From contig KV419432.1 of assembly GCA_001630475.1 (NCBI GenBank), positions 186,001 to 250,000 of the forward strand: DNA of 64,000 nt. Direction: 5' to 3'. Of this stretch, positions 823-52,221 are shown in pieces. Positions within the stretch are counted from its first letter, which is position 1. Each line of letters begins with the position of its first letter. The notes under the pieces are model-generated. The model did not search any database and was not told where the DNA came from. It saw only the letters and a list, made by a program, of their open reading frames with translations. Origin of the DNA: Sistotremastrum niveocremeum HHB9708. Its lineage: Eukaryota > Basidiomycota > Agaricomycetes > Sistotremastrales > Sistotremastraceae. Both the position numbers and the translations under genes were made by a program.

Positions 823-838
823 CGGAATCGGAGGTCGG
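823..838 (+). promoter_or_regulatory. Triple CGG direct repeat upstream of copy 1
   Basis: CGG at 823-825, 829-831 and 836-838, spacers 3 and 4, about 454 bases upstream of the copy 1 start. The same spacing and orientation recur at five other subfamily I promoters. Direct CGG repeats are typical sites of fungal Zn2Cys6 regulators; that reading is inference. Confidence 0.55.
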
Positions 839-1564
839 AATGGACTTACTTTTTCATGCTCTGCTGCCTCTACTAGTATAGCCTATGTGCGACATCGGCA
901 ATTCTCAGCCAATTGTCGCATATACTGATCGCCATAGTGCCTCAGGAACATCTGTCCTGCATATGATAAATTTCTGGAAGGTCTCGTCCTGCGCTGAATT
1001 TTTTCGACCTGACCTACTATGCTCCCAAGCTGCATAGCTGCTCGTTGATCGCTAATTCATTTCGAATCTTTCGACGGTCTCTTACCTTTCGCGAGTCGAA
1101 ATGCAGTGGCAGTTGCCAATTTTCTCTCATGCCTCTACCTCGGAAGCTTTCAACGCTTGTATCGATTGGCTTCCAGGAGGACATGCACCATACTTCTCCT
1201 GGCTGAATTTCCTTGCTCTGTATCTCTTATACTTGCTTCTGCCCTTTTTGGTGCAACTACTACGAGGCTTTAGCTCTACTGCTGTCAAGATGCATTCGCA
1301 TTCGAGACTGGATCTTTGGGTTTCACAGAGACAGATCGCCAATCCTCGGCTTCCGGCTCTCATTACCTCCCTTTCAATATCACAGTGCTATTCCGATCTG
1401 GATGTTGAGAAAGCCATGTGCCTAATGAGGTCCATTTGTCCCTGACTCTACTATCATCACTACACTACTCGTTGTATGAAAGTTTGCAAGCATGTGAAGG
1501 CCAACATGATAACCCAAAAGATATCTTCTAAGATTCTTCTTTGTTGTTCCAGGTCTAAAACTAA

Positions 1565-1683
1565 GGGTGCGTTTGGATGCGCGCCAGTATGTTTCAAAAA
1601 TACTGTATAATGTAGATTGCATATCACGATCTACGTTAATCGTCGTATAATGTTATACAGCAATGTGTGCGCCAAACGCGCGC
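1565..1683. repeat. Possible very small MITE or foldback sequence
   Basis: GCGTTTGG at 1569-1576 is repeated inverted as CCAAACGC at 1672-1679, and a second nested inverted pair, CTGTATAA at 1603-1610 and TTATACAG at 1653-1660, lies inside. The first bases, GGGTGCGTTTGG, resemble ends of small hAT/Harbinger-like elements. I could not find a convincing target duplication, so this is tentative. Confidence 0.3.
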
Positions 1684-1930
1684 AAGTCATTGACTAATGG
1701 TCAGGCGAAAACATTGGCCGTCGTGTCCAGGTCTGAAATTTAGTCCGGGACTCCGGGGCAAATGCATATGCATGCGTTAGCTAATAGGTATCACGTACTA
1801 GAGCAGTGCAGGTGGAGATATAGTAATAAATATCCTGTACGGTGTCTAGATATAACACTATATGAGTACCTTCAATACATATACGATCAATTACCAAATC
1901 ACAAAGAGGATGAAACTCAACTATGCACTC

Positions 1931-4900
1931 CTACAGTAATTCGACACCATCTCCGTCGGTACATAGCCCGCCGGGTGTTCCTAGTTCGATGTCTGACCAA
2001 GTGTCCAGCAACTCCGTATTGCGGGGTGCCATCCCAAAAGCATGTCGCAACTTTCGGAATGGAAAGGCCCAGGCCGCCTTCTTGGGAGAAAATGAGGGCT
2101 CATCCGTGTCAGCCAGAGATGGCTCTTCAAAGCCGTCAAGAAAATAAGGGCTGAGTTCATCGGCCAAATCTGACATCCAAATGAGTAGGAAAAGGTTGGC
2201 AGTTGATCACATCGACACACCTTGATCTTGTGCGGCACGGGCCTTGAGTTGCCCAAGATAATATATGGCTCTCTCCTCTGTATATTCACTGGTGCGTTCC
2301 GCATCATCCCAGGAAATCATTCTGTCGGACGTGTAAGTGCAACGGCTGAAGAAGTGAGCAGCATCGTTGAGATAGTCTCTTCCGATCTTGTCGAAAGCAC
2401 CGTGATCAAGATAAAACATGACTGTGTCTCCGTGTTTGCGCCAAGTCTGACGTTCAAGCTTGTGGTGGGCGATATGATAAATCACATGACATAGATCGAA
2501 TGAAGCAGGCACGGAAAAGTCGGACGGCAGGGAAAGTGCAAGACAAGCAAGGAAGTCAATAAGGCCAGACATCTGGTTAGATTCAGGGCAGAGCGTGTCA
2601 GAACTCGACATAGCATCCAGGATTTCGAGTTCGTGGTCTTTCGTTAGATACGAGACCAGATCCCGAATGCGAGTCTCCGGAGAAAATGGTACCTGTATCA
2701 GCTGAGCGACAAGGGCTGAGCGTTGTATTTCTGACAAGATCCGTGCAACAACAGCATTCCTCTGCTCCTCATCGAGGTCCAACAATTCCAATATCGGCGA
2801 CCTGATGTCTCGAACAGAAAATCGGATGTCGTCGTCCTCGTCCTCATCATTGTCATTGTCATTGTCATTTTCATTTTCATCTTCATCATCTTCATCTTCA
2901 TCTTCATCTTCATCTTCATCGTCATCGTCATTGTCGTCATCATTGTCCTGATCGGTCTTGTCAATCAAAGCACACACATTACGCACGAGGTCTTCACATT
3001 CCTCAGAGGACAATCCAGGAAGGGCTAAAAGAACGGTTATAATGAGCTGTCCCAGCACAACTGGTACTCACGAATAAAGCAGTACTTGAAATTTTGATAG
3101 AAAGTCACCAACTCCAATGGAGTCCCAGGATCGTTGTGTACATCGCGACAATACTCCCATAGCATGGAGGCCGGTTGAAGAACGGAGAGATTGTTGAGAC
3201 CGCCTCGATCGAGGTATTCGATCAATGTCTTGCTATATCGCTTGAACAGAGAGTTCTGATTGACAAGATCGAAGACAGGGGAGAGATCGAGCAAATAGAG
3301 ACTAACAAAATTGGACGGAGAATTGTGCATAATGTCTTCCAGGAATCCACACACAAGGAGAGGTTGATCAGGATCATAAGGGACTACGCTCATCTCCGGA
3401 AGATTGGAGAAGAAGTCAGACATTTCATCCAGAATCTCAACTTCGTTTCCTTTCACGATGAATGTGACGAGACCGCGAATATCACCCCACCACGTGTGAG
3501 GATTCCGGATGAGTGATCGGAGGACAGAAGCTCGATCGACATGAGAGAGAGTTGCAGTGACGTCATCAATCCTTCCATGCCAGAGCAGACGATCGCATGC
3601 ATAGACAGCAGATCTAAATATGGCTCCTCGAACTCCCAATTCTCGATCTGAATCAAACGTGCAGAGAATGCGGGCAACACACTCCTCGTTTGAGTAAGAC
3701 GCCCACTGCCGAAGATCTGCGTTGTCTTCTTCTAAAGAAGCGAATAACGCGAACGGAGGGAAGAAGTCGCGTCGAGATCCATTTGATGATTCGATCAACA
3801 GGGCACATTGCTCTTGGCACCATTGTGTGAAATCGTTTGCCTTCAGATCCTTTTGCCAGTCTCTCGCCATCTTTCCCAACCGTCCCAGTCCTTCAGGTAC
3901 ATCAGCTGCATGTGCACGGTCTCTTTCACACGGAATGACGTATCTGTCGCCAGGAATCGCTCGTGGACTGCATGGAAGACAGGGAGAAGCGAAGATCCTG
4001 CATCATGCCACTGTCGGTACTCGAATGAAGGCACCACGCGCTCTAGAACTTCCGCATCGTTGGTGTTGAGGACCAATTTTGCGAAGGTCTTCAGCGCTAG
4101 GAGATTGGGTTCATCATCTTTCTTCCATTCGATCAGGGCTGCCACATCCTCCTTGTCTGCGATGCCTTCGTCCTTGTAGCTCTCATCCTCGCTCTCATCC
4201 TTGTCGCTATTGTCTTCTGTCTGACTGTGACCGCATTTCTGTAGGCGACAAAGCATCCATCGGAACAAGGGTTTCATCGCGTTGCTCAGAGGGCTTTCAA
4301 ACGGTGAGTTGTCGTTGACACCTGCATGGACGGTCGTGACCGTGATGATGCCGAGAATGATGAGAGTGATGCCTGTCGCGAGCACGCCGCCGATGATGAG
4401 AATAGGCGCCGAGCCGGCGAACGAGAATGTCAAGTCCCACAATTGGATGAGGAAGCCGATGACGAAGAAGCCGATAGAAATGAGGAGGGTCCAGACTAAT
4501 ACTCCCATAAGAGAGCGCATTTTGCCTTCCGCACTTAGCATTCGCCTTTCACGAGCAAGCGCACGTTCGAGGTTCGTCTTGCCCAGCGGGGTGGCGATCA
4601 GTCGGGCACCCCATTGCATGCCCAAGACGCAGAGAACGGAGTTGGATATCTAAACGCGTAGTATAGGTCAGTATGTGTCCTCATTCGTGACTGAGAATCT
4701 TGGCTTACACTTGTAATTAGCGCTAGATAATAAAATAATGCCACCAACTGTGTAGGTACAGTCGGAAGCGGTGGTTTCGTCGAAGACGAATCAGATGAGC
4801 TGTCAGGAGGTGTGGTGAAGATTTGGATGACCGGCGAGATAAAGGCAGTGACTACAGTCAAGAAAAGAGCAATCTGTTGGTCAAGTGAGATGCCAATTCC

Positions 4901-5388
4901 TAGAACTCGACGAAAACACGTACGAATACCAGAGAGATTTGCATCACTTCTCTCCACTCTTCAACCATGACTTTGATCTTTGCCAGCGTCTCTTTATCTA
5001 GCGCATTCCATGTCTGAGCATCACGAAGCTTTCTTCCTTCATAAGCCTTATCATCTATATGCGCATCAGCAGCGTTCAAAAGATAAAATCAGTTCATACC
5101 TTTCGTAGCATCAGTCTCTAGCGCTTGCAACATGGTCGAATGCTTCTTCATAGTATCAAGCTGAGCACGAAGCTCGGCTTTGATCTCTTCCTTCTGCGCA
5201 TTCAAAGCCTTCGATTGCTCGCCGACCAGACCGTTGAGCGTCTTGACTAGCTCTAATAGCTGATCAAATTTGGATGGGGACGACGAGATCGTATCAGGAG
5301 GACGATCTTGAGCAGCTGCCGGCTCCCTGATTATGGATTGGCGTCGTTTGAAGCGAGGAGATCGGGAGCGACGGGAGCGCGACGACAT
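1931..5388 (-). CDS. DUF6535-type membrane protein, copy 2 (subfamily I), one frameshift
   Basis: Six exons: 5100-5388, 4924-5054, 4709-4873, 3072-4649, 2221-3024 and 1931-2169. Order of parts: RS-rich N-terminus, coiled-coil segment, four hydrophobic helices (one in exon 3, one across exons 3 and 4, two in exon 4), then a long helical region and a tail with the family motif SDIELGT. DUF6535 is recognised from the IALFLTVVTAFISP, LVALFYYLAL and LMGVLVWTLL segments. Exon 4 is one base short compared with copy 10: frame is lost near 3850-3885, between GWERWRE and KDLKAND. Without other processing this would end the protein after about 463 residues, keeping all four helices. The rest of the gene stays open in the other frame, so the change is recent or a sequence error. 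A long Asp/Glu tract interrupts exon 5. Confidence 0.75.
2829..2950 (-). repeat. In-frame GAN trinucleotide tract coding Asp/Glu
   Basis: On the coding strand this is a run of GAT, GAC, GAA and GAG codons, giving roughly 40 mostly acidic residues in exon 5 of copy 2. The other subfamily I copies have only a few residues at this place, so it is a coding microsatellite expansion specific to copy 2. Confidence 0.9.
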
Positions 5389-6631
5389 GATGATGGGAGG
5401 TACTGGGAAACGTGTGGTAGGAGACAGTGGTCAAGACGGTGGTACCATCGCCCGTGTGAGTTCTGAGCTCAGTGCTGCCTCGTTGTCTCAGCGTCTCCTT
5501 CCAGGACACCGGAGGTTAGCCAATGAGAAAATGAGAACGTATATTAATGAGCTCACTGCCACAATCAACGAACGCGTGATATGCCTCTTTTCCAGAGATA
5601 TCGTATCGAGACCAGAACGATCTTGCTCGTCGTAATTGCTGGATGCTGCTTGATGTGCCTGGCTGTTTTCGTCGTCCTTGTCGCTGTCCAAAGCCACCAT
5701 ATTTGCAAGCTCGATTTTCACGAGGGAGAGACACGTTGGCGAAGCAGGATTTTTTATCCTGGACTCAATGGCATTGTACTGGGAAGACCAGAGACAACGG
5801 GTGAGGTCGCCGGCATGCGCTCGTCGATGGCGGTGAGCTTGAGGATGACCGGAATCGGAAATCGGAATTGACTCACTTTCTCATGCCCTGCTGCCTCTAT
5901 ATGCGACATCAGCAGTTCTCAGCCAATTCTCGCATATCATGATCAACATAGTGCCTCAAGAACACCTGCTCTGCCCCGAATAATTTTAGCGTAGTTCTTT
6001 CCGTTCGCAGAATTTTCTGTAACATGATCTGCTGTGCTCCGAGGCTCCTAGTTGATCAAACCTTTATTCCCACTTGTACTCTCATTGCCTCCGTCTTGAT
6101 ATCGTGGGGCTGTCTAATTTAGATGGCAAGAAAACCAGTCTCGACCAATTTTCTTTCGCCCAGGATGCTCCAGCGGCCTCATCGACTTACTCGCTTCATG
6201 AAATTTCTATCAAGCGAAGCTTCGAAGGCCGCCATGATCAACGCACTCGGTCGACGTCCAGATTCTATGATTGTAAACCAGGAGTTTTGTCAGCCTGGCA
6301 CTGTCAACGGATCGGGATATGCGGAGGGACAGCCAGCTCTGACAGACGCGAAGCTTTGCAGCGGGACACGGCATCAATCAGGGGAACTTAACTGTCGTTC
6401 CCAAGTCTGTGCCGGGGGTTTGGGGAGCACGCCATATATATCGTAAATGAGTATGATATTGAATACAGTGCACGTCGGATTGGAATATAATATTAATCAT
6501 ACAATGTAGTACGAAGCCCAGCCTTCTGCGCTACAAGATGGATGCGTTTGTCCATCGCATCTCTGTCTCTAAATGATATTCATTTGGCAACATAAGAACT
6601 TTTACAGATACTCCCAAATCGCTGTTAATTT
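5389..6631. other. Intergenic region between copies 2 and 3
   Basis: Promoter side of copy 2, with an inverted CCAAT box at 5520-5524 and a triple CGG element at 5850-5865, followed by the 3' flank of copy 3. The first 600 bases resemble the upstream region of copy 1. Open frames at 6074-6446 show no family features and are not called. Confidence 0.6.
5850..5865 (+). promoter_or_regulatory. Triple CGG direct repeat upstream of copy 2
   Basis: CGG at 5850-5852, 5856-5858 and 5863-5865, about 462 bases upstream of the start codon. Spacers are 3 and 4 as in the other five cases. Confidence 0.55.
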
Positions 6632-9926: not shown

Positions 9927-10839
9927 GATGGCCGAGAGGAGAGAAAGACACTGAACGGGAGTATGTGAGAGCCCAACGTAGGGAACGGAGACTTGTAGAG
10001 CTTTATGGATGGCACCATCGTTGCTACAGCGTCTGAGGTGGGAGTCTGCAAAGTGCCAGCCAATGAGAATATACTTAACAAGGTACGTGAAGGCACTGTT
10101 ACCATTTTCGAAACGCTCATACATTCTCTTTAGAACCTGTTTTCTTGAAGGGCGCCCATCTGTGCAGTAATGCCGGGTGGTGACTTGCGGCGCATATGCA
10201 TCAGGTTCGAGAACGACAACGGTTCATCGCACGGCGACTGGGCAGATCCGCGAGCTTCAAAGCCCTCGATAATCTCGAGGATTTTCTCGATATCGGAGGG
10301 GACATCTTGGAAATGTGATATTTTGAGGACAGATGCTAGCTTGACGATGCAAGTGAGGATGACGGACGTCCAGAGCCAGTGAAGCCAAAGAGAGTTCGGA
10401 AGCGGAGATCGGATGGTCGCAAAATAACGCACATATGACGTCGACCCATGTACATGTTCAACTTGAAAACCCGCCAAAAAATATCAGACGCATTCACGCC
10501 GGACACAATCAGTCGTCGTAGTATTGTCTTCCGTACTGGCGTCGATGTGGGCACCAGTCTCTGGGAAAGAGAAAGGTGTGGTGGAATTGCATGTCTTATG
10601 TCTAGATTCCAGTGTCATTCCACTGGCACGAAGTCTTTCAAGCCTCTGCGCTTAGCCTGATAGTCATTCTTTACGTGGTCGGAGAATCAGGAAGATGAAT
10701 GACAAATTTTATCAACCAGTTTCTTATTACAAATACAGGTCAGATACTGACAAACACGCTCGTTCTCTGGCTATGTTCTGATAACAATTAGGATGAGCCT
10801 GTTGAGAAAACGTGCGAAACTAGCGCTTTTCGTACCATG
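9927..10839. other. Intergenic region between copies 3 and 4
   Basis: Carries an inverted CCAAT box at 10060-10064 and a triple CGG element at 10397-10412 for copy 3. A minus-strand open frame at 10130-10477 has a protein-like composition (acidic DVPSDIEKILEIIEGFEARG segment) but no start context or splice pattern I can defend. It may be a gene relic. Confidence 0.5.
10397..10412 (+). promoter_or_regulatory. Triple CGG direct repeat upstream of copy 3
   Basis: CGG at 10397-10399, 10403-10405 and 10410-10412, about 471 bases upstream of the copy 3 start. The bases between the triplets differ from copies 1 and 2 while the spacing is kept. Confidence 0.55.
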
Positions 10840-14123: not shown

Positions 14124-14974
14124 GGTAGTGTGGTGTGGTAGCGTAGGGAGAGGTATGCAAGACGAACATTCTCTGACCTCGTCCTTGTATAACAAGACCA
14201 GAGCCGTGTAGGGCCATGTGTGCGCTACCGTGGTCTTGTTGCTGAAGCGTCTCTGGTGGGAAATCGTAGACCATCAGCCAATGGAAATATTAGAAAATGG
14301 TGTCCATAACACTGACTGCATCATATGGAAACCATCGGATCTTTCCAGGATACCTGCACAGCCCCTGTATATCGAGTGCGTTGCAAAGTATGAACAACGT
14401 TGGATGATGTGCTCGATTCGGACAATCCAGGGCCCGGCGCTCCGGTTCGACCATTACTTTCGTGGCTGGTCTGAGAGATTTCGCGCTGCCCAGTAGTGTC
14501 TACCATACTCGAAGGATGGATGGCATCCAGTCGGACACAGCAGCATGGATGTATGCTTGACGGCGAGATAAAGGAAAGAAAGATTACCGGAATCGGAAAC
14601 CGGATTTGCTCCTAGCGGCCCTGGCCTGCGATTATTTATTTTTTTGCACGGAATGGATTGATACAAGTCATGTATTTCCAGACGCTATTCGATTGAAAAT
14701 ACTTCCAAGGACATAAGGTGGAAAAGGCACAATTTTGGAAGGCCTACGCATGCTAGAACGGACTCCAGCTTTACACTGACCAACCGTCAGGCTTCTGCAA
14801 ACAACTCCGAGTCTGGTTTGAAACCCCTGCGTATCTTCGCTCCTTCTACTCTTCCCAACCCCTAGGAGAGTTATCCTTCAGGAGAATTCATGGAGGCCGA
14901 CAGTTCCTCGTAGTATAATATACCGTCGCCGTTTTCGCATTTACGATTTTCCATTTTGCTGCATGGGGACAGTA
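14124..14974. other. Intergenic region between copy 4 and the MFS gene
   Basis: Promoter side of copy 4, with an inverted CCAAT box at 14278-14282 and a triple CGG element at 14588-14603, then the 3' flank of the transporter gene. No further gene seen. Confidence 0.6.
14588..14603 (+). promoter_or_regulatory. Triple CGG direct repeat upstream of copy 4
   Basis: CGG at 14588-14590, 14594-14596 and 14601-14603, about 465 bases upstream of the copy 4 start; spacing identical to the other copies. Confidence 0.55.
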
Positions 14975-17392: not shown

Positions 17393-17412
17393 TTAGCCCA
17401 CCTCGCGACAGA

Positions 17413-17428
17413 GAGGTGAATTTAAGTG
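17413..17428. repeat. Helitron subterminal inverted repeat, left copy
   Basis: GAGGTGAATTTAAGTG, the exact reverse complement of 23383-23398. Its outer six bases form one arm of the 3' terminal hairpin (17399-17418). Confidence 0.85.
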
Positions 17429-17455: not shown

Positions 17456-20400
17456 TTATCCAGTATCAAGTAATACATCATTTATTGTAGTATAACGGCG
17501 TCGTTTATCTTGTATGCGGTGCTCCATTGTGTTCCCTTTCCCCCCTAAATTCTTAACCCGGTTGTAGTCGACAGTTTCAATTAGAGCAATGTCATTGATC
17601 GTTCGAACACGTGAGAGAGCCACAAATGTTAAGCCAGTGCTGAATTCTTTGGTTCCGAGAGCAATTCTCGCGCCGTCGCCAAGAGTAAGACCTTGCGATT
17701 TGTGAACCGTTATAGCCCATGCGAGACGAAGCGGGATTTGTGTTCGAGTACATTCTCTTCTTGAAGATCCAGCTGCTTGCCAGTGAGTTTTGAATGGAAC
17801 AATAGGAATGAGTTTTCTGTTATCTTCGGTATGCCAGAGACTTGGTCCTAAACCAAAGTTAGCATGATATTCATGACATGTCCGGCCAACCTTTGTATTT
17901 GGGAGCCGAGATCAGCACTACGTAAGGAAGGCTTGAAGTTGATTCGGCCTCGGGGCCCCAGATGATATCTTCAACGACAGCTTCGGTTCCGTTCACGAGG
18001 CCTGAGGATAATTAGTAGTCGGGCTTATGATAGACATTTCTTACCCATTTCGGTCCAAAGGTTTCTTGTGAGCATGACCTTGGCTCCTATACTGAGGATA
18101 AGCTCGGGATCGAGATTCGATGCAACGTCGGATGTTGCTGTTGCTGCCTCTCGACCTCCTTCGTGAGTAGCTTTGATGCGTGCGCAGGGCTTTCCATTTT
18201 GTAATAGTCGTTGCAAATTGTAAGCATGTGCAGGTTCTTTTCGCGTAAACAGGCAGACGGTATCTTTCAATCGTTGTCGATCTTCGGCTGAGAGCTTCTC
18301 CCAGTGTCGATGCGATAGAAATTCCCACTGGGGTCTTGATAATTCGCCATTGCGGGCCGAGGTAAGAAGGGCACGAAATTGATCGCCGGTGTCTCCCCCT
18401 CCTTGTTGTCGGAGAAGCTGTGTGAGCTCGAAGCTTTTGTTGAAACGATTATAGACCGATTTCCCATGCCGTTGAAGAGTGGATCTCGGGGAATCTTTCG
18501 TGAGGGAAGGTGGTGGCGAGAAGAGGCCGAGGTCGCCGACGGGAGGAAGTTGATAGAAATCGCCAATTAGAGAGACACTGAAGCCGCCAAGCCATGTATC
18601 CATGGGGCGAAGCTGTCGTAGTCGCGAGTCGATCTGAGCCAAAAGAGCTAATCCTAGCATCGACTTCTCATCTATTATCACAAACTCGATGCCCTCCCAA
18701 TCCTTCTGAATTTTTCGTAATTTTTCGTTTGCGAGGGGCAGCATGCCTTCGTCTTTGTTGTTGACTCGGACAGGGATGGATAGGGCAGAGTGGATAGTCC
18801 AACCTTCGACGTTGAATGCTGCAACACCTGAAGGTGCCAACACTCGAAGAGGATGGGGGCGATTTGCTTTTTCAGCCATGTCGCCTAGCGTTTGACGAAT
18901 CGCCTTGATGAGAAAGGTCTTGCCGGTGCCAGCGGTGCCGTCGATGTTGAATGCAAAGGCGGGATTAGGAGCTCCGTTGATGATTTGTTGGAAAGCTGCT
19001 TGATATTGATCATGAATTTGACGTTGAGCATCAACGAGATTGTTGATGTCAACTCGCTCGTCTTCAGGTAAATTTTTATCGGCTTCGTATTCTCGACGCG
19101 CTGTAGTCAAGTACTGGCCCATATCATCTCGATGATTGTCCTCCCATCGATTCCAGCCATCGTGAGTATTGAGCAGTGTATCGAGATGTCGATTTCCCAG
19201 CTCATTGTCGTCTTCGGGAAGCGGTTGGCCAGGGAATAATTGCGCAAGTAGCTGCCAATCGGTGGGTTGCATAGTCTGGTCTTCACCCTCGAGCTCCTCA
19301 TCATTATCCGCCTCGTCCTGAGGTTCTGGTTCAGCGGTCCATTCGTTCCATAGAGTATCGGGTGGTAGAACACGTGGTGGACCTAAGCGAGCAGCGAAAG
19401 CTTCAGTCCAAGATTCGTACATGCCAAGGAGATCGTCATCGGGGTTTCGAAAGTGATGATGTAGAGTGAGTTTGATTCTACACCACTCGTCGTATGCTTC
19501 GCCTTCAGGATTGGGAGGGAGTCGAGGCCATACTCGCAAGATTGGTAGACTATCTCGATCCCGCCGTCGAATATACTTGTCCTTCTCCCATCGGTATTCT
19601 CGGAGGACTGTATTCAAGGAAAGCTCTTCCATATCCGGAGGTCGTTCGCGGTACCTGTCAAGTTCTGATTTTGAGGTGACAATTCGGCGAGAGTGTGTTG
19701 AAGCGGCTACTGCAGGCTCGTCAGCATTGGCTGCCGCTTCCCGTTCATTGCGCATGAGACGAAGCGCTCCGTTGTTATTTAAGACGAGGGTTGAGAAAGA
19801 TCGAGAAGAGCGGAAGAGGGGTATACCGAGGAGGAGATGATGAGTCTCTTGGGCAGAATACTTTCGCTCGGAAAGCATTTTGTTCAAGAGTTTCGTACAG
19901 GTACTTCGCACGCTCATATCATTTGGTGCGTCTCGGATGATCTTGTCAAGCATGCTGGAGAAAGTAGGTGCGTCTTTTTCTGCTTTGGTAGCATATTTTG
20001 CAATGTATCTATCAGGTAAATGGACGATCAGCCATGTATTCGTGTTTTGCTACAAAAACAAACTTACTTGATAGCAGAGTATCGGCTCATGACTGGTTTG
20101 AGGTCCATGTTTGCACGCCATAGCATGAGGAGAGTCGGGTTATAGCAATTCGTATAAGGGTCGTTTCGCCGAGCTTCGAAGCGGGGTCTTCCAAGAGAAT
20201 CTACGCCAACTTTGCCTTGATCGCATGTCTCGAAAGGGAAGTCAAAGCGACAGACGACTTGGCCCTGCCGTTTGACCTGACAATAACCTGGCTTGCATTC
20301 TCGATGTCGTTGTACGCAGTTCACAATGTCGGCAAGTTGGGCATCATTGAGTTCCATTTCTTCTCGAGGCATTGAAACGGGGCTGCGGCTGACATTTGGG

Positions 20401-22955
20401 ACATTAGGATCGCCGTCGAAGACTCTTGGATTAACAGCAGATATATGTTCGTCCCAAAATTCGGCGAAATCGTGAATCTTCTGTTTGGTTTCCTCGGATG
20501 GTTCTGGAGGAGGCCCGGCAGAGACAGGAGAGCGAGACAGATGTGAGAAGTCGATATTGTCGGGGTTTGGAGCGCCGTCTAGCCAGAGAAAACCGTGAAT
20601 ATGACCGCTTCCACGCTCTTGCCACTCATAGCGATACCAAAAGTCTTTGACGTTGAATAGTGGCTTGATGACGGTGTTCATAAATATACGAAAGCGAAGA
20701 TCGAGATATCCCGCCGCAATATGAGGATTTTCGTTGAGAGACTTGGTGCGCTGAGCTCGAGCTTGAGGACTGTCGTGAGGGTGGACAGAATACGATGGCA
20801 TGTGTCGATGTAGATCATCCCATTGTTTGTCGGCGGCGGAAAAGGTAATGAACAGATGTGGGGTGCCGAGTACGTCGATCATGTCCTTCAATTCTGCCCG
20901 TCGTGTGGCCCAGTAAGCTCTGGTTCCTCTGAGTTGTCGTCCATAGCGCATCATCCGACCTGCTATAGCTCCATCGCCAGCTTCGATCATTGTACGCAGA
21001 TCTTCGACCGTGAGGTGGCTCTCACCGACATCTTGGCGGACGTAGGTCTTGGCATGTTCTGCAGCCCGAGCTCGTTGTATGGTATTGAAAGCAAACCAAG
21101 CGAATCGCCGGTGCCGTGAGAAGCGACCATCGGAATAACGAAGCATGTGCTCGAAGTAATCGGGGGCACTGATTCGATCTGAGCGAGGGGCATGAAGGTC
21201 GGCACTACCTGTCGGGAAGAGGGTGGGGAAAGCTCGAACAATGTATCCAGGGGTTTTCTCATTGATCGGTACGAGGTCTACAGTGGGAGCCTGGATCTAC
21301 AATGGAGATTAATCACCATTAATGTATCGGACATTGGAACTCACAATTGTTGTGTCAACCGGCAGAGTATCAAGTTGAGCACACCGATGGAGCACATCAT
21401 TGATGGCGGTACTCTCGGCTTGATCGTCTGGTAGATTCAGTACTCCTCCCAGTACTTCCGTGGGTTCGTCAGATTCGTTGCTATCGTCACCTGCACACTC
21501 CGGAGGACCGGGAGCTGGCACGAGTTCAGGGCGATGGTTGCCTGCGCTTTCGACTGTAGTGAGTTGGTCGGCTATGGATCCGTCTTCGGGCAGATTTTCT
21601 AGCATGTCTTCGTCGATCTGGACATGTTGATAATGGGGATTGTTTTGGCATAGATAATGCAAAGCATCCCGTATATGCGCCTTTCTGACCTTAAATTCGA
21701 TATGTCGACTTAAATCAACGCCGGTTTGTCGAATGACAATGATGTCGAGATCAGACGGGCGACGCGGAAGGATAGGAGGGGAATGTAACTGCGGGGGGAG
21801 TTCTTCGACATGTTGTACGAAATTGCATATATGATCTTGATATCGAATTTGACCTCCTCGAACGTAGCGAACTTGGATGACTGATTTAGTGAGAGAGATC
21901 ATTTGCTCTTCGATATCTGTGAGGTCCTTCAAGCAATCTGGCACGTCTTTTCCTACAGCACGGTTATAGGATTCATCAAGACCGTATATGCAGCTATCGT
22001 ACCTGGATCCATCTCATTTTCTGCTGAAAACTTCTTTCCTTTCAAAGGGGACCTCTGACATCGATCACATCTCGTACTTTCCGGCTTCATAGTCCAGAAT
22101 TTCTCGCAGCAGAGATTGCAATCCACGTAGCGAACGGATTGTATGGCGTCGTTGAATTTGTCAGCGACTTCGTGACTGTGATCTGAGAAGGTGTTGGGGG
22201 AAGGGTCGGGGGCATTGGGTTCACTGGAAGCGACAGCTGTGGTCTCGAGATCGTTGAATTCATTCCAATATTCGTCGTCGTCGTTCTCCGTTTCGCCGTC
22301 AAGAGCAGCATGCGCCTCCGCTTCGTCCAGCTCGTCGCGATGCTGTATCAGTTCTCTCTCCATTCGATCCATTTCGTCGCCTTTGCTCTGACATTCTCTG
22401 CAATCACGTCTCCAGCGCAGTTGACCCCATCTGTTGAAGGAGGAGTAAGGCAACTGTTGTTTACAAGAGCAACAGCGTCGGGTTTCTGGATTTGTCTGCA
22501 TTATTAGAAGCTCAGGTTAAAACTGAATATTATGACGCACCTTTTGCAGATTCTTTGGCCTCTCTTCTTCTTTTCGTTTCATTCAATGTGCAAGTTGCGC
22601 AGTGAGATTTCACATTTCCTTGTCGAGTCAGAGTGAATTCTGGGAGATATTTCATCTTTTTGCATGATTTGCACTTCTTTCTGGTGTGGCATCGGCGACA
22701 TGTTAGGTGGGAGTTGTCTTCTGGTTGGGGGGTGTGTCGATTTCGCTCGAAGAGTCGGGGGTAGTTTTCGATGGTTTCGGGATATTTTTCTTCGCAGAGG
22801 AAGCAAGCACGATTAGGAATCGGTTGAGATGGAGGAGGGGTGACATCTGGACAGGATCCGTGCAGCAAGCTATGTGATCGCGCCGCGGCTCCTGTGAGTT
22901 TCTCTTTACATCGCCGACAGCGCAGGTAGAGTTTGACTGAGCGACGGGCTGACAT
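17456..22955 (-). CDS. Helitron Rep (HUH endonuclease) and PIF1-type helicase protein
   Basis: Seven exons: 22541-22955, 22003-22485, 21345-21952, 20068-21296, 18045-20008, 17891-18001 and 17456-17847, adding to exactly 1,734 codons (1,733 residues). The first two exons are rich in CxxC pairs (for example CRRCKEKL, CHTRKKCKSCKK and CCSCKQQL), likely zinc-binding and DNA-binding. Exons 3 and 4 carry the Helitron-like N region and the Rep domain, with LFITFSAADKQW, the HUH motif in GSGHIHGFLWL and the tyrosine motif YIAKYATK across the exon 4/5 junction. Exon 5 holds the PIF1/RecD2-type helicase: Walker A GTAGTGKT, Walker B FVIIDEKSM and SLIGDFYQLPPVGD. The last exon has AWAITVHKSQGLTL and ALSRVRTINDI. 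Together these nick, unwind and transfer a single strand for rolling-circle transposition. Confidence 0.9.
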
Positions 22956-40405: not shown

Positions 40406-41376
40406 GGAACGACGAGCTGCTCTCCAATGCGCTAGAAATGGGGAAGGATACTGGGGTGACCCCGATGACCGGCAGCCTAAAGAGCGTATTTTTGGATATC
40501 CTGGAGAGAAGGAAGTGGTTGTGAAACTGTTGTGAATCCTCGCTGTGAGATTGCCTCACGACTGCGGCACGCCTAGGTTACTACCAGGACGGCCATTGGC
40601 CGCCGATTGCACACAATGGGCCGGGGGGTGCATTGATGTTGCAGATTGAGGTGGCGTCAAGCCTTCGGCGCTCTCAACGTTTGCCAGTTTTTTTCAGTAG
40701 CTTCATCGGTGAAAAAACCAGGGCTTGATATAGAACCAAGTGTTCATACAAGGACTGTCGAATTTCGTAGCTGGTGGCTTTCGATAGTATTTCGGATGCG
40801 GAACTCGGATGATCATCTCTCATTTTCTCCCGACAAAACTTCATGAAACCTTGAATACGAATGCAGAGGCCGAATTTGTTAAATTTTATCTGTTTGTGAG
40901 TCGCTAGAATTGGTGCGATAAATGGAGATCTCTGCTATCTGAGTCGCATTCCATCCCTGATTGAAACGGCCCCGGCACTGGATTCCACCCACCACAGAGC
41001 TCCTTCAATTGCACTCGAGATCTAGTACGACCACAGTGGTAGTACGTGATATTCTGGTTCTCCTACTCGCTAAGTTATAGCATGAATTCTTCGCTTTACA
41101 GAGACTGAGCTCAAGCCGAAAAAGATCCGGCGTGTTTCATTAAAGGCGCCGGCGAAACATTGACAGGAACTCGGTATCAATAATACACTGTTCGTGGATG
41201 CATTAGTCTCGCATATGATGAACGTGTCGAGCATCACAAGTTCACTATATTTCGTGCAGGCTTCTCATAAGCTCACATACGGTCTTCGCCGAGAAAGTTT
41301 CGAATGAGGAAGGGTCGAAAGCCACCACACTCATGTAGCAGCGCGTCAAGACTCAAGTGAGCAGTCAGAGGTGCAG
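40406..41376. other. Intergenic region between copies 8 and 9
   Basis: Promoter side of copy 8, with ATTGG/CCAAT in GGCCATTGGCC (near 40591-40601) and a triple CGG element at 40793-40808, then the 3' flank of copy 9. No gene seen. Confidence 0.5.
40793..40808 (+). promoter_or_regulatory. Triple CGG direct repeat upstream of copy 8
   Basis: CGG at 40793-40795, 40799-40801 and 40806-40808, about 388 bases upstream of the copy 8 start. The flanking bases differ from copies 1-4 but the 3 and 4 nt spacers are the same. Confidence 0.5.
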
Positions 41377-44819: not shown

Positions 44820-46875
44820 TCACACAGAATCAGAGCACTCGACATCTGCCATATAAGCAGTCGCAGATTCATCGAAATCGAGAATAAATTGCTGCACCTT
44901 TTCCGAACGTGGAAGGATAGAACATCTAAAGGGCTTTGGATGACTGCGACATCGTATCAGATAAGACGCGAAAGGTTACTTAAAACGAAGTAGCTTACGA
45001 GACGACGCCGGAGGTGAATTGGGCTGATGGTGAAGCTTCTTCACCAGGTGCACGGGATATATTGTACACCGCGAGTATTGTGGCGACTTCGATCCATAAC
45101 GCAAGATCTGCAAGATGTTGTCCAGGGCAATTTCTGTGTAGCGTGAGGCGAGGAACCCAGGCCACCAAAAATAGTAAACACACCTTCGTCCGTATCCGAA
45201 GACAACCGCGCGTGGATCTAAGGGGAGATCTTCCAGCGACTTGCAATCTCCTCCTTGCACTGTCATCAGGAATCTCTCCGGTCGGAACTCTTCGGGTTGA
45301 GGATAAGTAGATGAGTCTCTGAATATTCCCCTGCGATAGATGGTGCAATCAGTCGAACAGGCCAGGAAAAGACTAGTAGTTACAAACCAGACATTGACGA
45401 TCACGGTAGTATGTTTCGGAATAGTCCAGGAGCGATACGCATGCTCGCTAGTGTTTGAATGTACCACACCAAGAGGCGCAATCGGAGCCCATCTCAAAAT
45501 TTCCTTCACTAACGCGTCAATGTATGCAAGCTTTTCGTTTTGACGGTCAGTAAAATTGGGCATCCTCTCATCGCCTGTGACAGACGAGAGTGCGCGCTGC
45601 GCACGCGCTTGAACATCTGGAAATAGGATCATTGCAAGGAAGAAGGCGTATATCGCTGACGCCGTCGTTTCTGTACCAGCAGAGAATATATCAGAAGCTG
45701 TCCACTTGAGACAATCGAGATCTTCGGCGGTGGGAGGAGATCCTTCGGTCTCGAGGATTTTGCGTACGAAGGACGGAGGAGCTGAGTGAGTCGCCTGATG
45801 GAAATGATGAGTCAGGATTTTTTCTGACGACACTGATTATTATGTCTGGCTCACCATTTGCGCTCGCACCATTTCGAACGGATAATTCACCACTTCTTCG
45901 GTCTCACGGCGCCACTTCGCAGCGATGCGAGGGAACGATACGAACGGGAGCCAAGTTGGAAGACATTTCACTGCAGCTTCTGTCAGGACTTCAATCGACG
46001 AGGGATATCATCATGAGACTCACGCGCAGGGATAGAATTGACCAGCCACGCTCCAGGTGCCGTAGCCTGTTCGAAGTAGCTGGACGTCGCACTTTCCATG
46101 CGAATCAAAGGATCGTTCAGCTTCGCAGGTTTATAGCCGTCTAGAAACATTTTGTGAGACAGGACAACAAATTGATAGGCAGGAATTTTACACGCAATAA
46201 GCAAAGCCACCGACGCAGTAGTCCATTTGATCCTTTGAAACAGTCTTTCTCCGCGCTCATCGCCATTGGCAATATCGTCGTAGATTCTTCGAACGAGCTG
46301 ACGTGCGGCTGTTTCTTCGAGTCTCCAATATTGAGAAGTGTGATGAGGGCTCATCAGGGAGTGAAAATATTTTCGTGCCGTGCGCATTCGAGCGTTATAT
46401 GGTGTTAAGACTAGAGCCTTCCCAAATCCACACCTGCAGCAAGTTGAGGCTATGTAAATAGGCAACCAAAGGAGAGCTTACATGTCGCTTGCGAATACAA
46501 CGCGTGGCTTGCTTGAGAAAATGGCAGACTTCTGTTCTAGCAAATCCAGCGCAGCCTGATGCGAATTGAGGAGGAGAACATGACGAGTAGCCGCCCTTAG
46601 ATAAACGACGTCTCCTGCAATCAAGAAGGTTCATGTCAAGATGGTGAGACTGCAAATAAAACGGCTGCTAACGTACCATACTCCAATCCCCACTGCCTGA
46701 ATTTCTGCCACGGCAACTCCTTCGGAAACTGCAAGAGATTCCCAACGATTGGGAACGGCTTCGGTCCTGGCGGCAACGACAATCGACGGCGAGAATAATT
46801 AGTGAAAAGCGTTTTGAAAGCCACCAAAGCTGCCAAACAGAGTGCGAGCAACACTGTGAGGCTCAGTTCATTCAT
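44820..46875 (-). CDS. Cytochrome P450 monooxygenase, microsomal, OrdA/CYP5150-like
   Basis: Nine exons: 46677-46875, 46482-46614, 46192-46433, 46024-46140, 45855-45970, 45388-45794, 45184-45330, 44999-45133 and 44820-44943, adding to 540 codons (539 residues), a full-length fungal P450. The N-terminal anchor LSLTVLLALCLAALVAFKTL is followed by the proline hinge LPPGPKPFPIVGNLL. The oxygen-binding I-helix motif is AGTETT, the ExxR motif is EILR in KEILRWAP, the PERF motif is in PEEFRPERFL, and the heme-cysteine motif is FGYGRRNCPGQ with the ligand Cys; the seventh intron splits that motif between the two arginines. It should be ER-anchored and depend on a P450 reductase. The family call is from general likeness of the ATAPGAWLV region; the substrate is unknown and no biosynthetic cluster is evident nearby. 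Confidence 0.9.
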
Positions 46876-48844
46876 GATGCATCAGGGGTGGAACGCATTT
46901 CAGCTGGCAAGGGGTTCCCCATGCTCTCTTAAAGCTTGCGTTTGTGGTTTGCTGGGGTTGCTTGTGGCTGTGGGAGGTGTGCCCGAGATGATGACCGAGG
47001 TCCCTGATCATTCAATGGATTCAGGATTGACCGGACTAGGACTCATTTGTCCGACGTGTCGTAGCAAGGGGAGGTGTTCCGTGCTGAGGACATCGGTGCC
47101 ACGATTGTCGTTCCAAAAAGCTTGAGTCAGTCGAGACAGGCGTGGGGTGAGAGTGGAGGAAGAAGTGACAACGCGCTGTGACGGACGTGACGGGAAGAGA
47201 AATTCGTTTCGTCGGGATTCGTGAATGTAGCGTCTTCCTTGGTGAGACGAAGATCAGGGAAGCAACGTTTGAGCTCAGGTTTATTTATGAACAATGGACA
47301 TATATGTGCTTCAGTGAAAATTCAAATACTCGCTCGATGCATGAAAACGGAAGCGGAATCCGGACATGCCCACCGATTCCTGGACGACGTCGACGTCGTG
47401 TAGTTCCTAGAACCACTAACCAACATGCATCAACGCTCATCTCGCGATTGTTGCATCGTAACACTTGAAGGCAAGGATACCGTCAATCTGACGCTCCCTC
47501 CAGCAATCATTTTTTTTACTCCAGCTTCGTCATCCAGCAGGGCTCGTCACGAGCACTTCCAAAGGCAATGTCGTCTTTTGAGCGCTCAGCGCAGTGGCCA
47601 AAACCATCCAAGTATCTGACCGTTATAAGATTGTCCGAGGCAAAGTGAGAAGCCAGGAGGCCTGTTACTCGATCGTAACCCGAGTCACCTGGTGGCATGA
47701 TGCGACCGGTTGTCAGACGCTCTGTCTCTGGATCCGGAAAGTTGCTATGGTTAGACCAAATAGCGTTATCAATGCCTCTTTCCATGAAAGTCGATTTCTA
47801 TGCCCTCCTGAGGTACGCATGATTTGACCTGGCTTCTCGAGAACGCCGACAAAGCTGCTGGCAATGTCAGGTTCCTACCCTGATTTCATCAGATTATTTG
47901 AGCCGGCGTGGTCACTAATCCTCTCACCAATCCTTGTTCATCAACCAACATATTCTGTGGATGAGGTCTCTCTCTGCATTTCCAGAACCCCTGATCAGTT
48001 CTCTGGCTCTGCGACGCTTCCAGAGACGGTTATGCCTGCATGAGTTCGTTGACTTGGCAGCTGCACTTTGTCTTCCATTCTCCTTTCCTATCGAAGAAGT
48101 CACACGCCCTCCGTTTGTGACAACTGTCTAATTCTGTTTCTCACTTTGATCCAACGCCTGCACTTGCCTCTTATGGTGCCGTTATGGTCGTCCGCCGGTG
48201 TATCAATGTGCTCCTCAGCACTCGTGCTCAAGTACCATGCAGTCAACCCAGACTATGGAAGAACCTCCCTGACCGTCTGATGTGCTGGCGTTGCTTATGT
48301 GGGTTGTCCTGGCTTCGGTCTCTGTGATGACGTCATATTTGTAACTCGTCCTGTCTTTTCTGACAATCTTTGGGGTTACCGCTTCATGTTCAAGTCGTCT
48401 TGTCTGGATGATCTCAGATAACAGCGATCGGTGTCAGGAACCTGCTATCGCTCAGAAGAAGCTCATATCGAAAAATATACGAGAAAATTGACTATCGGGT
48501 GGTATCGGACTTTTTCAAAGTCCGCCCATTTTTATTTCTATTTACCTTACGCCTTGAAGCTGCATGTCTGATTGACGTCTTCGTTGAATACAATAGACAC
48601 ATATCTCCGACTGCACTTGAATATTTTTGGAATTTTTCTGCATTTTTTAGTGATCTTGAGGCAGACTGAACCGCACGTTTCAGAGTGCAGCACATGCGTC
48701 GAAGAAGCCGCCGATATTAGCGATCTTATCGCTCGCCGTGCCGATGCTTCCCGTACAACTTTTCTTCGAGACAGCTCAGATGGGGTTCGTGCATCTCTTC
48801 CTCTGTCCGTCATCTCGCTCTTCCGTCTGTCTTACATCTAAAAA
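46876..48844. other. Intergenic region between the divergent P450 and deaminase genes
   Basis: About 2 kb containing both promoters. No family-like or spliceable coding sequence was found; open frames of 60-107 codons at 46802-47125, 47178-47468 and 48492-48813 look like chance. A 17-base sequence at 47166-47182 is a near inverted match to the motif in the 3' flanks of copies 5 and 7. Confidence 0.5.
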
Positions 48845-50211
48845 TGCGTAAGTTAATACATGTCAAAATTTCGTCTACGACGGCGAACTGACGAGATTCT
48901 GTTACTCACTGACAGGTCTCATCATCCGTGACGACCCTGCTGTATGCCACGTCTCAGAGATGTTGGATGACTTGATGGAAAAGCTGACATACAATGACAG
49001 TCAGTAGGAACTTACATCGGAGACTACATCGCGAAGAGGTAAGTCCAGGGTACTCGTCGATCTCAGATTTTCTGAACCCATTGTGTTTCAGAATAAACGA
49101 CTTCAAACCGACCCCTGAAAGACCCTTCGTGCTTGGCCTGCCCACTGGATCGTCACCGATCCCAACCTACAAGCATCTCATCGGCCTTCACAAGGCTGGC
49201 AAAATCTCTTTCGAGAATGTCGTCACGTTCAATATGGATGAATACGTTGGCTTGCCTCAGGACCATTCGGAGAGCTATCACACTTTCATGTAAGTGACAT
49301 TGTCCACATCTCAATATTACTGGGCTGACGGAGTGTAGGTTCCGAGAATTCTTCTCGCATAGTACGTATGCTGCACTTCAGCTGACGACGGCGGGGCTGA
49401 GCGCGTGATATCTTTTCAGTCGATATTCCACCCAAAAATGTTCACATCCTGAACGGAAACGCCGTTGATCTGATTGGAGAGTGCAAAGCGTATGAGCAGG
49501 CCATCAAAGACGCTGGAGGGATTGAGCTTTTCTTGGGCGGTATAGGAGAGGACGGTCACATCGCGTTCAACGAGCCTGGTACGTCCACCATCATCCCATG
49601 ACACCCACGTGTGTATTCATGTCACCTTCAGGCTCGTCTTTGACCTCCCGAACTCGTATAAAGACTCTGGCATACGACACGATCCAAGCAAATGCTCGCT
49701 TCTTTGGCAACGACATCTCCAAGGTCCCTCGCATGGCTTTGACGGTCGGTGTGCAGACCGTCATGGACTCAAGAGAGGTTGTAGTTGTTGTCACTGGTTT
49801 AAGGAAGGCGCTGGCCCTGAGCAAAGCCATTGGTGCGTCGCTCGATCCTTTTACGTCATCGATTTCTCATCCTGTTTTGTCAATGTAGAGGAGGGTGTCA
49901 ATCATCTCGTGAGTATACGGCCGCCTCTCTTGATTGAACAACTTAATGAGGACGATTTCTAGTGGACTTTGTCTGCCCTTCAATTGCACCCTTGGGCGCT
50001 TATCGTTGCGGACGAAGATGCTACAAACGGTCAATCGTTTCGATCGAATCATGACATGATCTTTCTTCTGACGAGTAATTCTGTTGAAATAGAACTTCAC
50101 GTCAAGACCGTCAAGTATTTCAAGTCTATTGAACGAGTCCAGGAAGAGGTCGAACGCAATCACGAAGAAGTCAGGAGAAACAGCGAAGGTCGCCAGGGTA
50201 ATACCTGGTGA
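48845..50211 (+). CDS. NAG1: Glucosamine-6-phosphate deaminase (isomerase)
   Basis: Converts glucosamine-6-phosphate to fructose-6-phosphate and ammonia in cytosolic amino-sugar breakdown. Ten exons: 48845-48848, 48916-48941, 49001-49038, 49092-49289, 49339-49361, 49420-49578, 49632-49832, 49889-49908, 49963-50029 and 50093-50211, giving 284 residues with consistent phases; the first exon codes only ATG plus one base. Family signatures: MRLIIRDDP start, [16 protein letters not shown] (phosphate-binding loop), [12 protein letters not shown] with the catalytic Asp, [26 protein letters not shown] with the general-base Asp and His, then [21 protein letters not shown] and [16 protein letters not shown]. 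Length matches eukaryotic members (about 266-289). The gene stands alone; no chitin or GlcNAc gene neighbours are seen in the window. Confidence 0.93.
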
Positions 50212-50489
50212 TCGTTCGAAGGACGTATACGATTGTGTCCATTTTTTTGTTCAGTCTCCTTCTGGGTTTGGGGACGTCAGGGTAAAGGAGTTCACTCAGC
50301 GACCGGCTGCGTACGGAACCTAGTCTCATAAGTTCGGCACTGTCACGTATAATTAACGCCCAACTACAATCGATGTTGGTTACAAAAAATCACAGAATGA
50401 AGGTTGACATCTAATACTTCAGTTTGTCATCGGTGGGGTTGTCCATCTCACTTGACATAAGGTTCTTCTAACTTGGCATGCCGCGGCCG

Positions 50490-51060
50490 TCAATGTAAGC
50501 CCGCCTCGGCCTCCTCTTTGGTAACCGGAAGACGGGTTGTGGAAATGATATATTTGGAGTGCAAAGGCATATCGTACGGTTCCCGACCTGTATTTTTAGC
50601 AGCGTATTTGCAAGTTTGCACAGCCTAAGAAAACTAAATCAGGAGGACAGAAACCTCACAGTTGACAAAACACACCCACCAAATACAATAGAAGAAAGTG
50701 AACCAACTCATTATACATACAGACCCATCGGTCTGGACATGCTATGAACTCTCTCAATGTCTCACAATGGCTTGGGAATCCATGCAGCAGCTTTTTTCCA
50801 GCTCTCTCCAATGCTTTTTCTGGATCCGGTGATTGTTGCCACTCATAGCGCACGGGATGATCAGGGTGCCTACGGATAAATTATATCAGAGATAAAAAGC
50901 AAATAGTGGGGAGTTGTACGACTTACATTGTGAAAACCTTGTCGATGAGCTCCTGCACAGCAATTTGAACAATCAATTGTTTATAGAATTGCTGTTGCAA
51001 ATCAGGGTTTTTGAGATGACGGAGTCTTCTATCGAGCCTTGCCCGGTCTGTCAAAACCAT
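50490..51060 (-). CDS. Unrecognised small protein, paralogue 1
   Basis: Three exons: 50927-51060, 50680-50869 and 50490-50624, giving 152 residues. I do not recognise the family. The model is supported by its paralogue at 61186-61769: the first two exons have exactly the same lengths (134 and 190 nt) and all phases agree. Shared features are RARLDRRLRHLKNP near the start, FYKQLIVQIAVQELI, HPVRYE, a FIACPDRW segment, and RLPVTKEEA close to the C-terminus (RLPTTEEEV in the other copy). It is rich in basic and helical residues, with no signal peptide and only a short hydrophobic stretch (VHFLLLYL) at the end of exon 2. It lies head to head with DUF6535 copy 10, 1.16 kb apart. A donor of GTGGGT is needed for intron 2, the weakest part of the model. 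Confidence 0.65.
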
Positions 51061-52221
51061 ACATATAGTATTTTGGAGAGAAATTACTAGGAAAAGGCTA
51101 TGAGTACAATATTGAGGAATCTGATCAGAGTTCCTGAGTCACAGAAGAGAGTCGAGTCAATTCGGCTGCGAGGGTATGATTAAACTCTCGAAACGAACTT
51201 CGACTTGATATTTTACAGTACATAGACCGATTGGACCCATGTCTTCATGCGAGAGAGCATGGACCTCTGAAAGTTGGCTGCATTCCGATTCATTAGCTCA
51301 CGTATAAATCAATATTATTCAGCTCGGGCCTTAGCTGGCTTACCTTCAGGTTGACTCAATCTCGGGTTCCCTTACCGAGTTAAAATGGAACCTCAGCGCA
51401 TTATTGGGTTCAATTAAAATTTATACACGTTCGCCAGGGATTTGAGATATCTGAAGCTGTCCTTGAATAGAATGAGAAGAACATTAGCACTGGTTTCTTC
51501 TTCATTGTCTTGAACGCTGTCAGACGACTCGGCGACGAGTGACGATATGAAATATGCTTAGACGCTTCATGAGAGGAATGTTGAGACTATAGTATTGTCT
51601 TCTTTTGACTGAGTGATGACCATTGAATTGGACGTCAATTGTAGAAATCGTACCAAACCAAGCCCAAGTTCGAGTCGAACACGACCTGCAGGATTTCGGC
51701 ATCTTCGGCACAACCTATGAACCTCATCCCGAGATCCGATTCCGGTCATCCTTGACCGACGTCGAGGAGTTTATGAAGACGAGCGCACCTACCGTCTCTC
51801 GTCTTCGCAATGCAATGCACGTACCATTCGACTCAGGATGACTATGATGCCTTGCAAACGCGCCTCCTCTCTTGATATATGAGCTAAAGATCATAGTGGG
51901 GGCTTTGGACCGCGACGAAGACAGATACAATAAACATCATGCACTGCGATTTACCAACTGCCACTGTCAGGAGCGCTCTAATCGACTACACATATGTGCT
52001 CTTTATCTTCAAAAATCTGTTTCCGCACTAGTCCATTCTGACAGTATGTGCATCGATTTTCCATCTCCGTTTTCTCATTGGCTGACGACCTGTGCCACCC
52101 TGTCAGGACAGGCGCTGAAGCGTCCACTTGAAAGCAGCACTGAACTCAAGACTCACACGGCCGGTGGCACCACTCTCCTGATCCTCCATCCTCAACAAAC
52201 CTTCCACTACCTATCGACACC
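51061..52221. other. Divergent promoter region, small gene 1 and copy 10
   Basis: Contains a triple CCG (CGG on minus) element at 51729-51744 and an ATTGG box at 52077-52081 for copy 10. The sequence from about 51100 to 51750 is related to 61800-62330 upstream of the second small gene, so this region was duplicated together with the small gene. Confidence 0.55.
51729..51744 (-). promoter_or_regulatory. Triple CGG direct repeat upstream of copy 10
   Basis: Seen as CCG at 51729-51731, 51736-51738 and 51742-51744 on plus, i.e. CGG-N3-CGG-N4-CGG on minus, 478 bases upstream of the plus-strand start. Relative to its gene the orientation is the same as in the minus-strand copies. Confidence 0.55.

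What the first reader, a model, noticed from the sequence alone, without database searches (positions are those of the whole stretch)
823..51744. CGG-N3-CGG-N4-CGG element in six of seven subfamily I promoters
Copies 1, 2, 3, 4, 8 and 10 each have three CGG triplets with exactly 3 and 4 nt spacers (823, 5850, 10397, 14588, 40793, and 51729 on minus). All have the same orientation relative to the gene and lie 388-478 bases upstream of the start. The spacer bases vary while the spacing does not, which points to protein binding rather than mere duplication. A Zn2Cys6 regulator that binds CGG direct repeats is likely.
Basis: partly seen in the sequence, partly recalled or inferred. Interest (0 to 1): 0.75.

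Follow-up and report, generated by a model that had tools for sequence, protein, structure and literature searches.

The report
Triple-CGG promoter element in a fungus
A short DNA signal made of three regularly spaced CGG triplets sits at nearly the same distance ahead of most genes of one duplicated fungal gene group, and ahead of an unrelated neighbour, so it is probably a landing site for a gene-control protein rather than only a leftover of duplication.

Summary
The seventh lies before an unrelated P450 gene, same orientation, 488 bp from the ATG (403-493 for the DUF6535 genes). An eighth lies just left of the window (C39:182811). A dispersed paralogue on C10 has a site inside the stretch asked for beforehand; one on C24 has spacers 3 and 3. 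Eight of 44 related genes carry the site at the expected place, against 0.018 by chance. Genome-wide, CGGAWNCGGANNYCGG occurs 54 times, its reversal 6, the swapped-spacer form 17. The 46 sites outside C39 share T or G at a base the search left free (39 of 46), and 27 of 46 lie outside open frames of 100 aa. Duplication can explain four array copies, less well the rest. Against: three close paralogues lack the site, orientation is unbiased outside C39, and part of the base preference also occurs in swapped-spacer controls. Likeliest: a binding element of three CGGA half-sites, probably for a Zn2Cys6 regulator. The protein is unidentified; expression was not testable.

The parts
823..838 (+). 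triple-CGG element upstream of DUF6535 copy 1 (gene on minus, ATG at 369, most of the gene left of the window)
5850..5865 (+). triple-CGG element upstream of DUF6535 copy 2 (minus, ATG about 5388)
10397..10412 (+). triple-CGG element upstream of DUF6535 copy 3 (minus, ATG about 9926); about 50 bp upstream of the place held in copies 1, 2, 4, 10 (read by eye)
14588..14603 (+). triple-CGG element upstream of DUF6535 copy 4 (minus, ATG 14123); BLAST similarity to the copy 2 promoter is limited to 34 bp over the site
40793..40808 (+). triple-CGG element upstream of DUF6535 copy 8 (minus, ATG about 40405); shifted like copy 3 (read by eye)
51729..51744 (-). triple-CGG element upstream of DUF6535 copy 10 (plus, ATG 52222)
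44976..46875 (-). cytochrome P450 gene; one exon frame (44976-45632) matches PF00067, the N-terminal exon was read from the sequence
53068..54528 (+). exon of DUF6535 copy 10; this frame alone gave no Pfam match, but the gene rings (C39:238735-239172); a 408-aa stretch was the query for relatives
57772..60859 (+). DUF6535 copy 11 (PF20153), the subfamily member of the window without the element

Best explanation
The element is a functional cis-regulatory site: three direct CGGA half-sites, starting 6 and 7 bp apart, consensus about CGGA(A/T)(T/G)CGGANNYCGGA. On C39 it lies 403-493 bp before the ATG with its CGG strand antisense to the gene. A fungal Zn2Cys6 (Gal4-type) regulator, as one or more molecules, most likely binds through CGG-reading zinc clusters and so controls subfamily I DUF6535 genes and the neighbouring P450 together. 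The same site is used sparsely elsewhere in the genome. Shown: the sites, their position and orientation on C39, variation of spacers and flanks around fixed CGGs, presence at an unrelated gene and at dispersed paralogues, and a genome-wide excess of this spacing. Inferred: that a protein binds, that it is of the Zn2Cys6 class, and that the genes are co-regulated.
For: Seven sites in the window against 0.38 expected. Eight of 44 related genes have an antisense site 1300-1600 bp upstream of the conserved exon, against 0.018 expected. The C10 paralogue has one at 348762, inside the 500-bp stretch I had asked for beforehand; C24 has a (3,3) form at 317605, 1457 bp upstream of its exon. The P450 promoter has it at 488 bp, with no BLAST similarity to the DUF6535 promoters at E 0.01. 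In 28 pairs of the 8 C39 sites, spacers agree in 3-7 of 7 and flanks in 2-17 of 20. Genome: 54 refined sites against 6 reversed and 17 swapped-spacer; 93 against 20 for CGGANNCGGANNNCGG. At the 46 sites outside C39, T or G stands at the free sixth base in 39 (expected 0.519, p 3e-6; 8 of 8 on C39; 10 of 17 at the matching base of swapped sites). ORF overlap is lowest at the site: 19 of 46, against 31-38 of 46 at 700-900 bp. The genome has 37 Zn_clus matches.
Against: No binding, expression or second-genome evidence was available. Outside C39 no orientation bias was significant (p 0.15 and 0.24), and neighbouring genes show no common theme. The swapped (4,3) controls lay inside an open frame in 8 of 16, not clearly different from 19 of 46, and they too have A after the third CGG (10 of 16, against 31 of 46), so these two features are not special to (3,4). 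Second spacer 3 is as common as 4 (36 and 37 of the first 100 listed) and first spacer 2 has 30 of 100, though (3,3) includes hexamer runs. Relatives on C13 and at C39:96543 and C39:133487 (63% identity) lack the site by the patterns I could list. The C10 site was missed by the stricter patterns and seen only with the looser one. None of 37 Zn_clus matches is on C39.
Confidence: 0.55

Rival explanations
1. The element is functional, but its reader is not a Zn2Cys6 protein: another DNA-binding class, or a general factor that opens promoters, reads the CGGA repeats.
For: The other sites flank frames of mixed, partly housekeeping kind (RING finger, DER1, YL1_C, HRI1, F-BAR), as a general factor would. 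Spacing is not wholly strict (C24). None of 37 Zn_clus matches is on C39.
Against: CGG triplets are the typical targets of Zn2Cys6 proteins (PMC5559640, passages), and direct CGG repeats with a preferred 5' T recall TerR (PMC4360782, passages). 93 semi-generic sites in 34.7 Mb are few for a general factor (my judgement).
Confidence: 0.25
2. Common descent only: the promoters were copied with the genes and the CGGs are kept because too little time has passed.
For: Promoters of copies 1, 2, 10 and of the gene at C39:182811 align in pieces of 171-694 bp at 65-85% identity. Copies 1 and 2 are 78% identical over 590 bp.
Against: Copies 3 and 8 show no BLAST similarity to the rest at E 0.01, and copy 4 only 34 bp at the site. 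Copies 3 and 8 hold it at a shifted position (by eye). P450 is not a paralogue. By BLAST the C10 promoter matches that of copy 2 only within the first 205 bp or so, yet C10 has a site at the right distance.
Confidence: 0.12
3. Replication slippage: the sites are short runs of a CGGAAT-like hexamer without function.
For: Hexamer runs exist in this genome (overlapping matches at C1:5899-5925 and C32:424418-424444), and some sites have four CGGs (L025, L080).
Against: A fourth CGG 3 or 4 bp away occurs at only 2 of 46 sites outside C39. The 7-bp second step and its variable spacer do not fit a slipped hexamer.
Confidence: 0.03
4. Chance matches, made impressive by looking.
Against: 0 of 100 shuffles reach seven. 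For the 37 of 44 genes outside the array hits 0.015 sites were expected and one was found, on C10.
Confidence: 0.02

Closest known systems
TerR binding site of Aspergillus terreus (TCGGHHWYHCGGH), a Zn2Cys6 site of CGG direct repeats (PMC4360782: abstract passage and found passages seen)
   Same: Direct CGG repeats, 5' T favoured before CGG, monomer binding possible, shared by genes of one cluster.
   Different: Spacer 5 and two half-sites; TerR did not recognise a 4-bp spacer. Here three half-sites with spacers 3 and 4, in front of DUF6535 and P450 genes.
Pho7 site of fission yeast, TCG(G/C)(A/T)xxTTxAA (PMC5559640: abstract passage and found passages seen)
   Same: TCGGA core, and TT two bases on resembles the second unit here; Zn2Cys6 reader.
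   Different: A single CGG, no second or third half-site, AA at the end.
Rgt1 sites of budding yeast, CGGANNA in several copies (recalled; only a search listing seen)
   Same: CGGA core, several copies in one promoter (recalled).
   Different: Copies are spread over a promoter (recalled), not in one 16-bp block; the seventh base of the first unit here is C, not A.
DUF6535 family, PF20153
   Same: Array genes match this Pfam family.
   Different: Function unknown by its Pfam title; one paper in the library names it (listing only).

Membership tests
Zn2Cys6 (Gal4-type) binding site | CGG triplets in a set orientation | tested here: met
   Three direct CGGs, antisense to the gene in 8 of 8 C39 sites; no significant orientation outside C39
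Zn2Cys6 (Gal4-type) binding site | constant spacing with freer spacer bases | tested here: met
   spacers 3-7 of 7 in 28 pairs of 8 C39 sites chosen for the pattern; (3,4) 54 against (4,3) 17 genome-wide; but (3,3) is as common among listed matches and C24 has it
Zn2Cys6 (Gal4-type) binding site | arrangement equal to that of a characterised regulator | tested here: not met
   N3/N4 triple not seen in listings or passages; TerR needs N5
Zn2Cys6 (Gal4-type) binding site | bound by a Zn2Cys6 protein | not testable with these tools
   37 PF00172 matches exist in the genome, none on C39
Zn2Cys6 (Gal4-type) binding site | target genes respond together | not testable with these tools
   no expression data
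promoter copied by gene duplication | similarity extends through the flanks at all sites | tested here: not met
   true for copies 1, 2, 10 and C39:182811; not for copies 3, 8 and P450, and 34 bp only for copy 4
hexamer microsatellite | run continues beyond three units | tested here: not met
   fourth CGG 3 or 4 bp away at 2 of 46 sites
TerR site | two CGGs with a 5-bp spacer | tested here: not met
   spacers are 3 and 4

The most novel reading that the evidence does not exclude
A genome-wide three-half-site element, CGGA(A/T)(T/G)CGGANNYCGGA, of an arrangement not seen among the Zn2Cys6 sites in the papers I found, is read by one protein carrying several zinc clusters in tandem, one per CGG. 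The single 505-aa open frame with four PF00172 matches at C10:389526-390245, which has CGGAATCGGAAGCGG 55 bp away, would be the candidate. It would hold a growing DUF6535 array and the P450 gene within it in one regulon, with the site re-established at shifted positions as promoters diverge.
Probability: 0.08. Interest if true: 0.75.

Novelty: new variant of a known kind. Interest (0 to 1): 0.45.

Why it matters
DUF6535 is a family of unknown function with 151 exon matches or more in this genome. A shared control site gives a direct handle on when these genes are used and links some of them to a P450 gene that can be assayed. A three-CGG direct-repeat site would also add an arrangement to the known ways in which zinc-cluster regulators read DNA, in a fungal group where few regulator sites are known (my general knowledge).

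Tried and rejected
Paralogy alone, slippage and chance were tested and set aside (see rivals). At first I held that the element follows the array and not the family, because strict patterns missed the dispersed paralogues; (C10) and the C24 site overturned that. A codon-usage score for gene calling failed: 2 of 53 loci gave any segment, so I used open-frame length. Pfam was run on 62 of 84 open frames next to the 46 other sites (all of 150 aa or more, two of them only): 23 of 62 had a listed family, five of these with no family over its cut-off; no common theme and no DUF6535. The letters of the motif in papers gave 495 papers, 30 listed, none of them on such a site by title, none opened. PriB of shiitake as a candidate reader led nowhere (listing only). 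A frame that I read as glucosamine-6-phosphate deaminase gave no Pfam match on the one 65-aa exon tried.

Rows left out: the C39:182811 locus (2827 bp) was kept out of ORF coverage (53 of 54 used). One of 17 (4,3) sites was not fetched, because it overlaps a (3,4) site at C71; 16 used. Of five (3,5) sites four were fetched, 3 of 4 inside an open frame. Spacing tallies use the first 100 of 151 and of 140 matches. One search uses the 44 of 104 listed matches whose query start is 3 or less. The generic pattern (431 sites, 230 reversed) was listed only up to C9, so weaker sites at C13 and elsewhere are not excluded. The four offsets were my choice and are not corrected for number.
Full report
The window (C39:186001-250000 of a 34.7-Mb genome of unnamed species) holds an array of DUF6535 genes (PF20153), a P450 gene (PF00067 on one exon), a gene that I read as glucosamine-6-phosphate deaminase (one 65-aa exon tried, no Pfam match) and a Helitron-like insert (PF14214 and PIF1). 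The genome has 151 PF20153 exon matches, a lower bound. The make-up suggests a mushroom-forming basidiomycete (my inference).

Observation. Among all triple-CGG spacings of 0-12 in the window, (3,4) is commonest with 7 and the next has 3. From the 5' end of the site on the gene strand to the ATG the distances are 469, 477, 486, 480, 403 and 493, and 431 for the gene just outside the window (C39:182811). For the P450 gene it is 488. In all eight the CGGs lie on the antisense strand.

More than duplication. Promoters of copies 1, 2, 10 and of C39:182811 are plainly homologous, so for these the shared site could be simple inheritance. Copy 4 matches copy 2 over only 34 bp, over the site. Copies 3 and 8 carry the site about 50 bp upstream of a TCATCCTC-like box that in the other copies adjoins it, and at the old place the triplets look broken (read by eye). 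The similarity of copies 3 and 8 around their sites, score 32, is no better than the best of 200 shuffles, 32. The P450 promoter has no BLAST similarity to any of them at E 0.01. The eight sites were chosen because they match, so 9/9 CGG identity is built in; what is informative is that spacers (3-7 of 7) and flanks (2-17 of 20, and 2-9 of 20 in pairs with copy 3, 4, 8 or P450) vary around them.

Dispersed relatives. With the 408-aa query from copy 10, 44 of 104 listed matches begin at query residue 3 or less. In 8 of 44 a CGGANNCGGANNNCGG site lies 1300-1600 bp upstream on the antisense strand, against 0.018 expected. The range was set after the seven C39 genes were known, so the real test is the other 37 genes: 0.015 expected, one found, on C10 at 348762. 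That lies in the stretch 348500-349000 that I had asked for, in vain, as the expected place; the stricter patterns had missed it. On C24 a site with spacers 3 and 3 lies 1457 bp upstream. Against this, relatives as close (C13, C39:96543, C39:133487, 63% identity) have none by these patterns, nor has copy 11 or C28. BLAST of the copy 2 promoter finds C10, C13 and the two C39 outliers only within the first 205 bp or so from the ATG, short of the element.

Genome-wide. CGGAWNCGGANNYCGG occurs 54 times against 6 for its reversal and 17 for the swapped-spacer form of equal composition. CGGANNCGGANNNCGG gives 93 against 20, CGGANNCGGANYCGG 77 against 40, the plain CGG form 431 against 230. With the second spacer at 4, first spacers 2, 3, 4, 5, 6 gave 30, 37, 15, 11, 7 of the first 100; with the first at 3, second spacers 2-6 gave 9, 36, 37, 14, 4 of the first 100. 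So (3,4) stands out against its controls, but (3,3) and (2,4) are not rare; (3,3) contains overlapping hexamer runs. The reversal is an imperfect control, since CGG and GGC differ in context.

The 46 sites outside C39 show preferences not imposed by the search: T or G as the sixth base in 39 of 46 (expected 0.519, p 3e-6; 8 of 8 on C39), A after the third CGG in 31 of 46 (expected 0.307, p 3e-7), T before the first CGG in 25 of 46 (p 0.0016; 3 of 8 on C39). At the swapped (4,3) sites T or G stands at the matching base in 10 of 17, but A after the third CGG in 10 of 16, so the last preference belongs to CGGA repeats in general. The sites fall inside an open frame of 100 aa or more in 19 of 46, against 38, 33, 31 and 34 of 46 at -900, -700, +700 and +884 (paired p 7e-5, 0.004, 0.03, 0.001, not corrected); at 100-200 bp the figures are 22-26. 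The (4,3) control sites do so in 8 of 16 and four (3,5) sites in 3 of 4, so intergenic location is not proof for (3,4). No strand bias was significant outside C39 (p 0.15, 0.24). One clear case is the HRI1-like gene of L080 (PF16815), whose first ATG lies 440 bp from the site, with the CGGs on the sense strand, the opposite of C39.

Mechanism. Three CGGA units beginning at 0, 6 and 13 make a direct-repeat block. [quoted passage not shown] TerR binds TCGG-N5-CGG as one or two monomers and favours a T before CGG, but not a 4-bp spacer (PMC4360782, passages). I saw no published three-CGG N3/N4 site in the listings; the library is open-access only. The genome has 37 PF00172 matches, none on C39, so a cluster-borne regulator is not seen. 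I give 0.55 to a Zn2Cys6 reader and about 0.8 to some functional protein-binding site; the rest is shared by the rivals.

Limits. No expression, binding or second genome was available. Gene starts were taken from the sequence and from open frames. 

Noticed in passing
G000:C10:389526-390245 (-): One 505-aa open frame has four PF00172 zinc-cluster matches (29-35 bits), and CGGAATCGGAAGCGG lies 55 bp away at C10:390300. It may be a multi-cluster regulator, or the site may be coding; letters were not available.
   Followed up: partly
G000:C18:642779-642880 (-) and C18:643186: The best zinc-cluster match of the genome has CGGAAGCGGAAGCGG about 300 bp upstream.
   Followed up: no
window 18025-22501 (-): Helitron-like insert in the DUF6535 array: Helitron_like_N frame at 20064-21146 (PF14214) and a PIF1-like helicase frame at 18025-19953.
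   Followed up: partly
G000:C19:546796-552275 and C91:27727-33206: Two DUF6535 matches on C19 have twins on C91 with identical scores, as from a recent duplication or from separately assembled haplotypes.
   Followed up: no
C39 promoters, 125-146 bp before the ATG in copies 1, 2 and 10: CATTGGC, a reversed CCAAT box, is kept in six of the seven C39 DUF6535 promoters aligned (copy 8 reads AATCGGC).
   Followed up: no
L080 around the site (C71:34631): Four CGGs in a row with spacers 4, 3, 4, ahead of an HRI1-like gene.
   Followed up: partly
window 2830-2950: Run of TCATCT/TCATTG-like units in the 3' part of DUF6535 copy 2, probably an acidic low-complexity coding stretch (read, frame not checked).
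   Followed up: no
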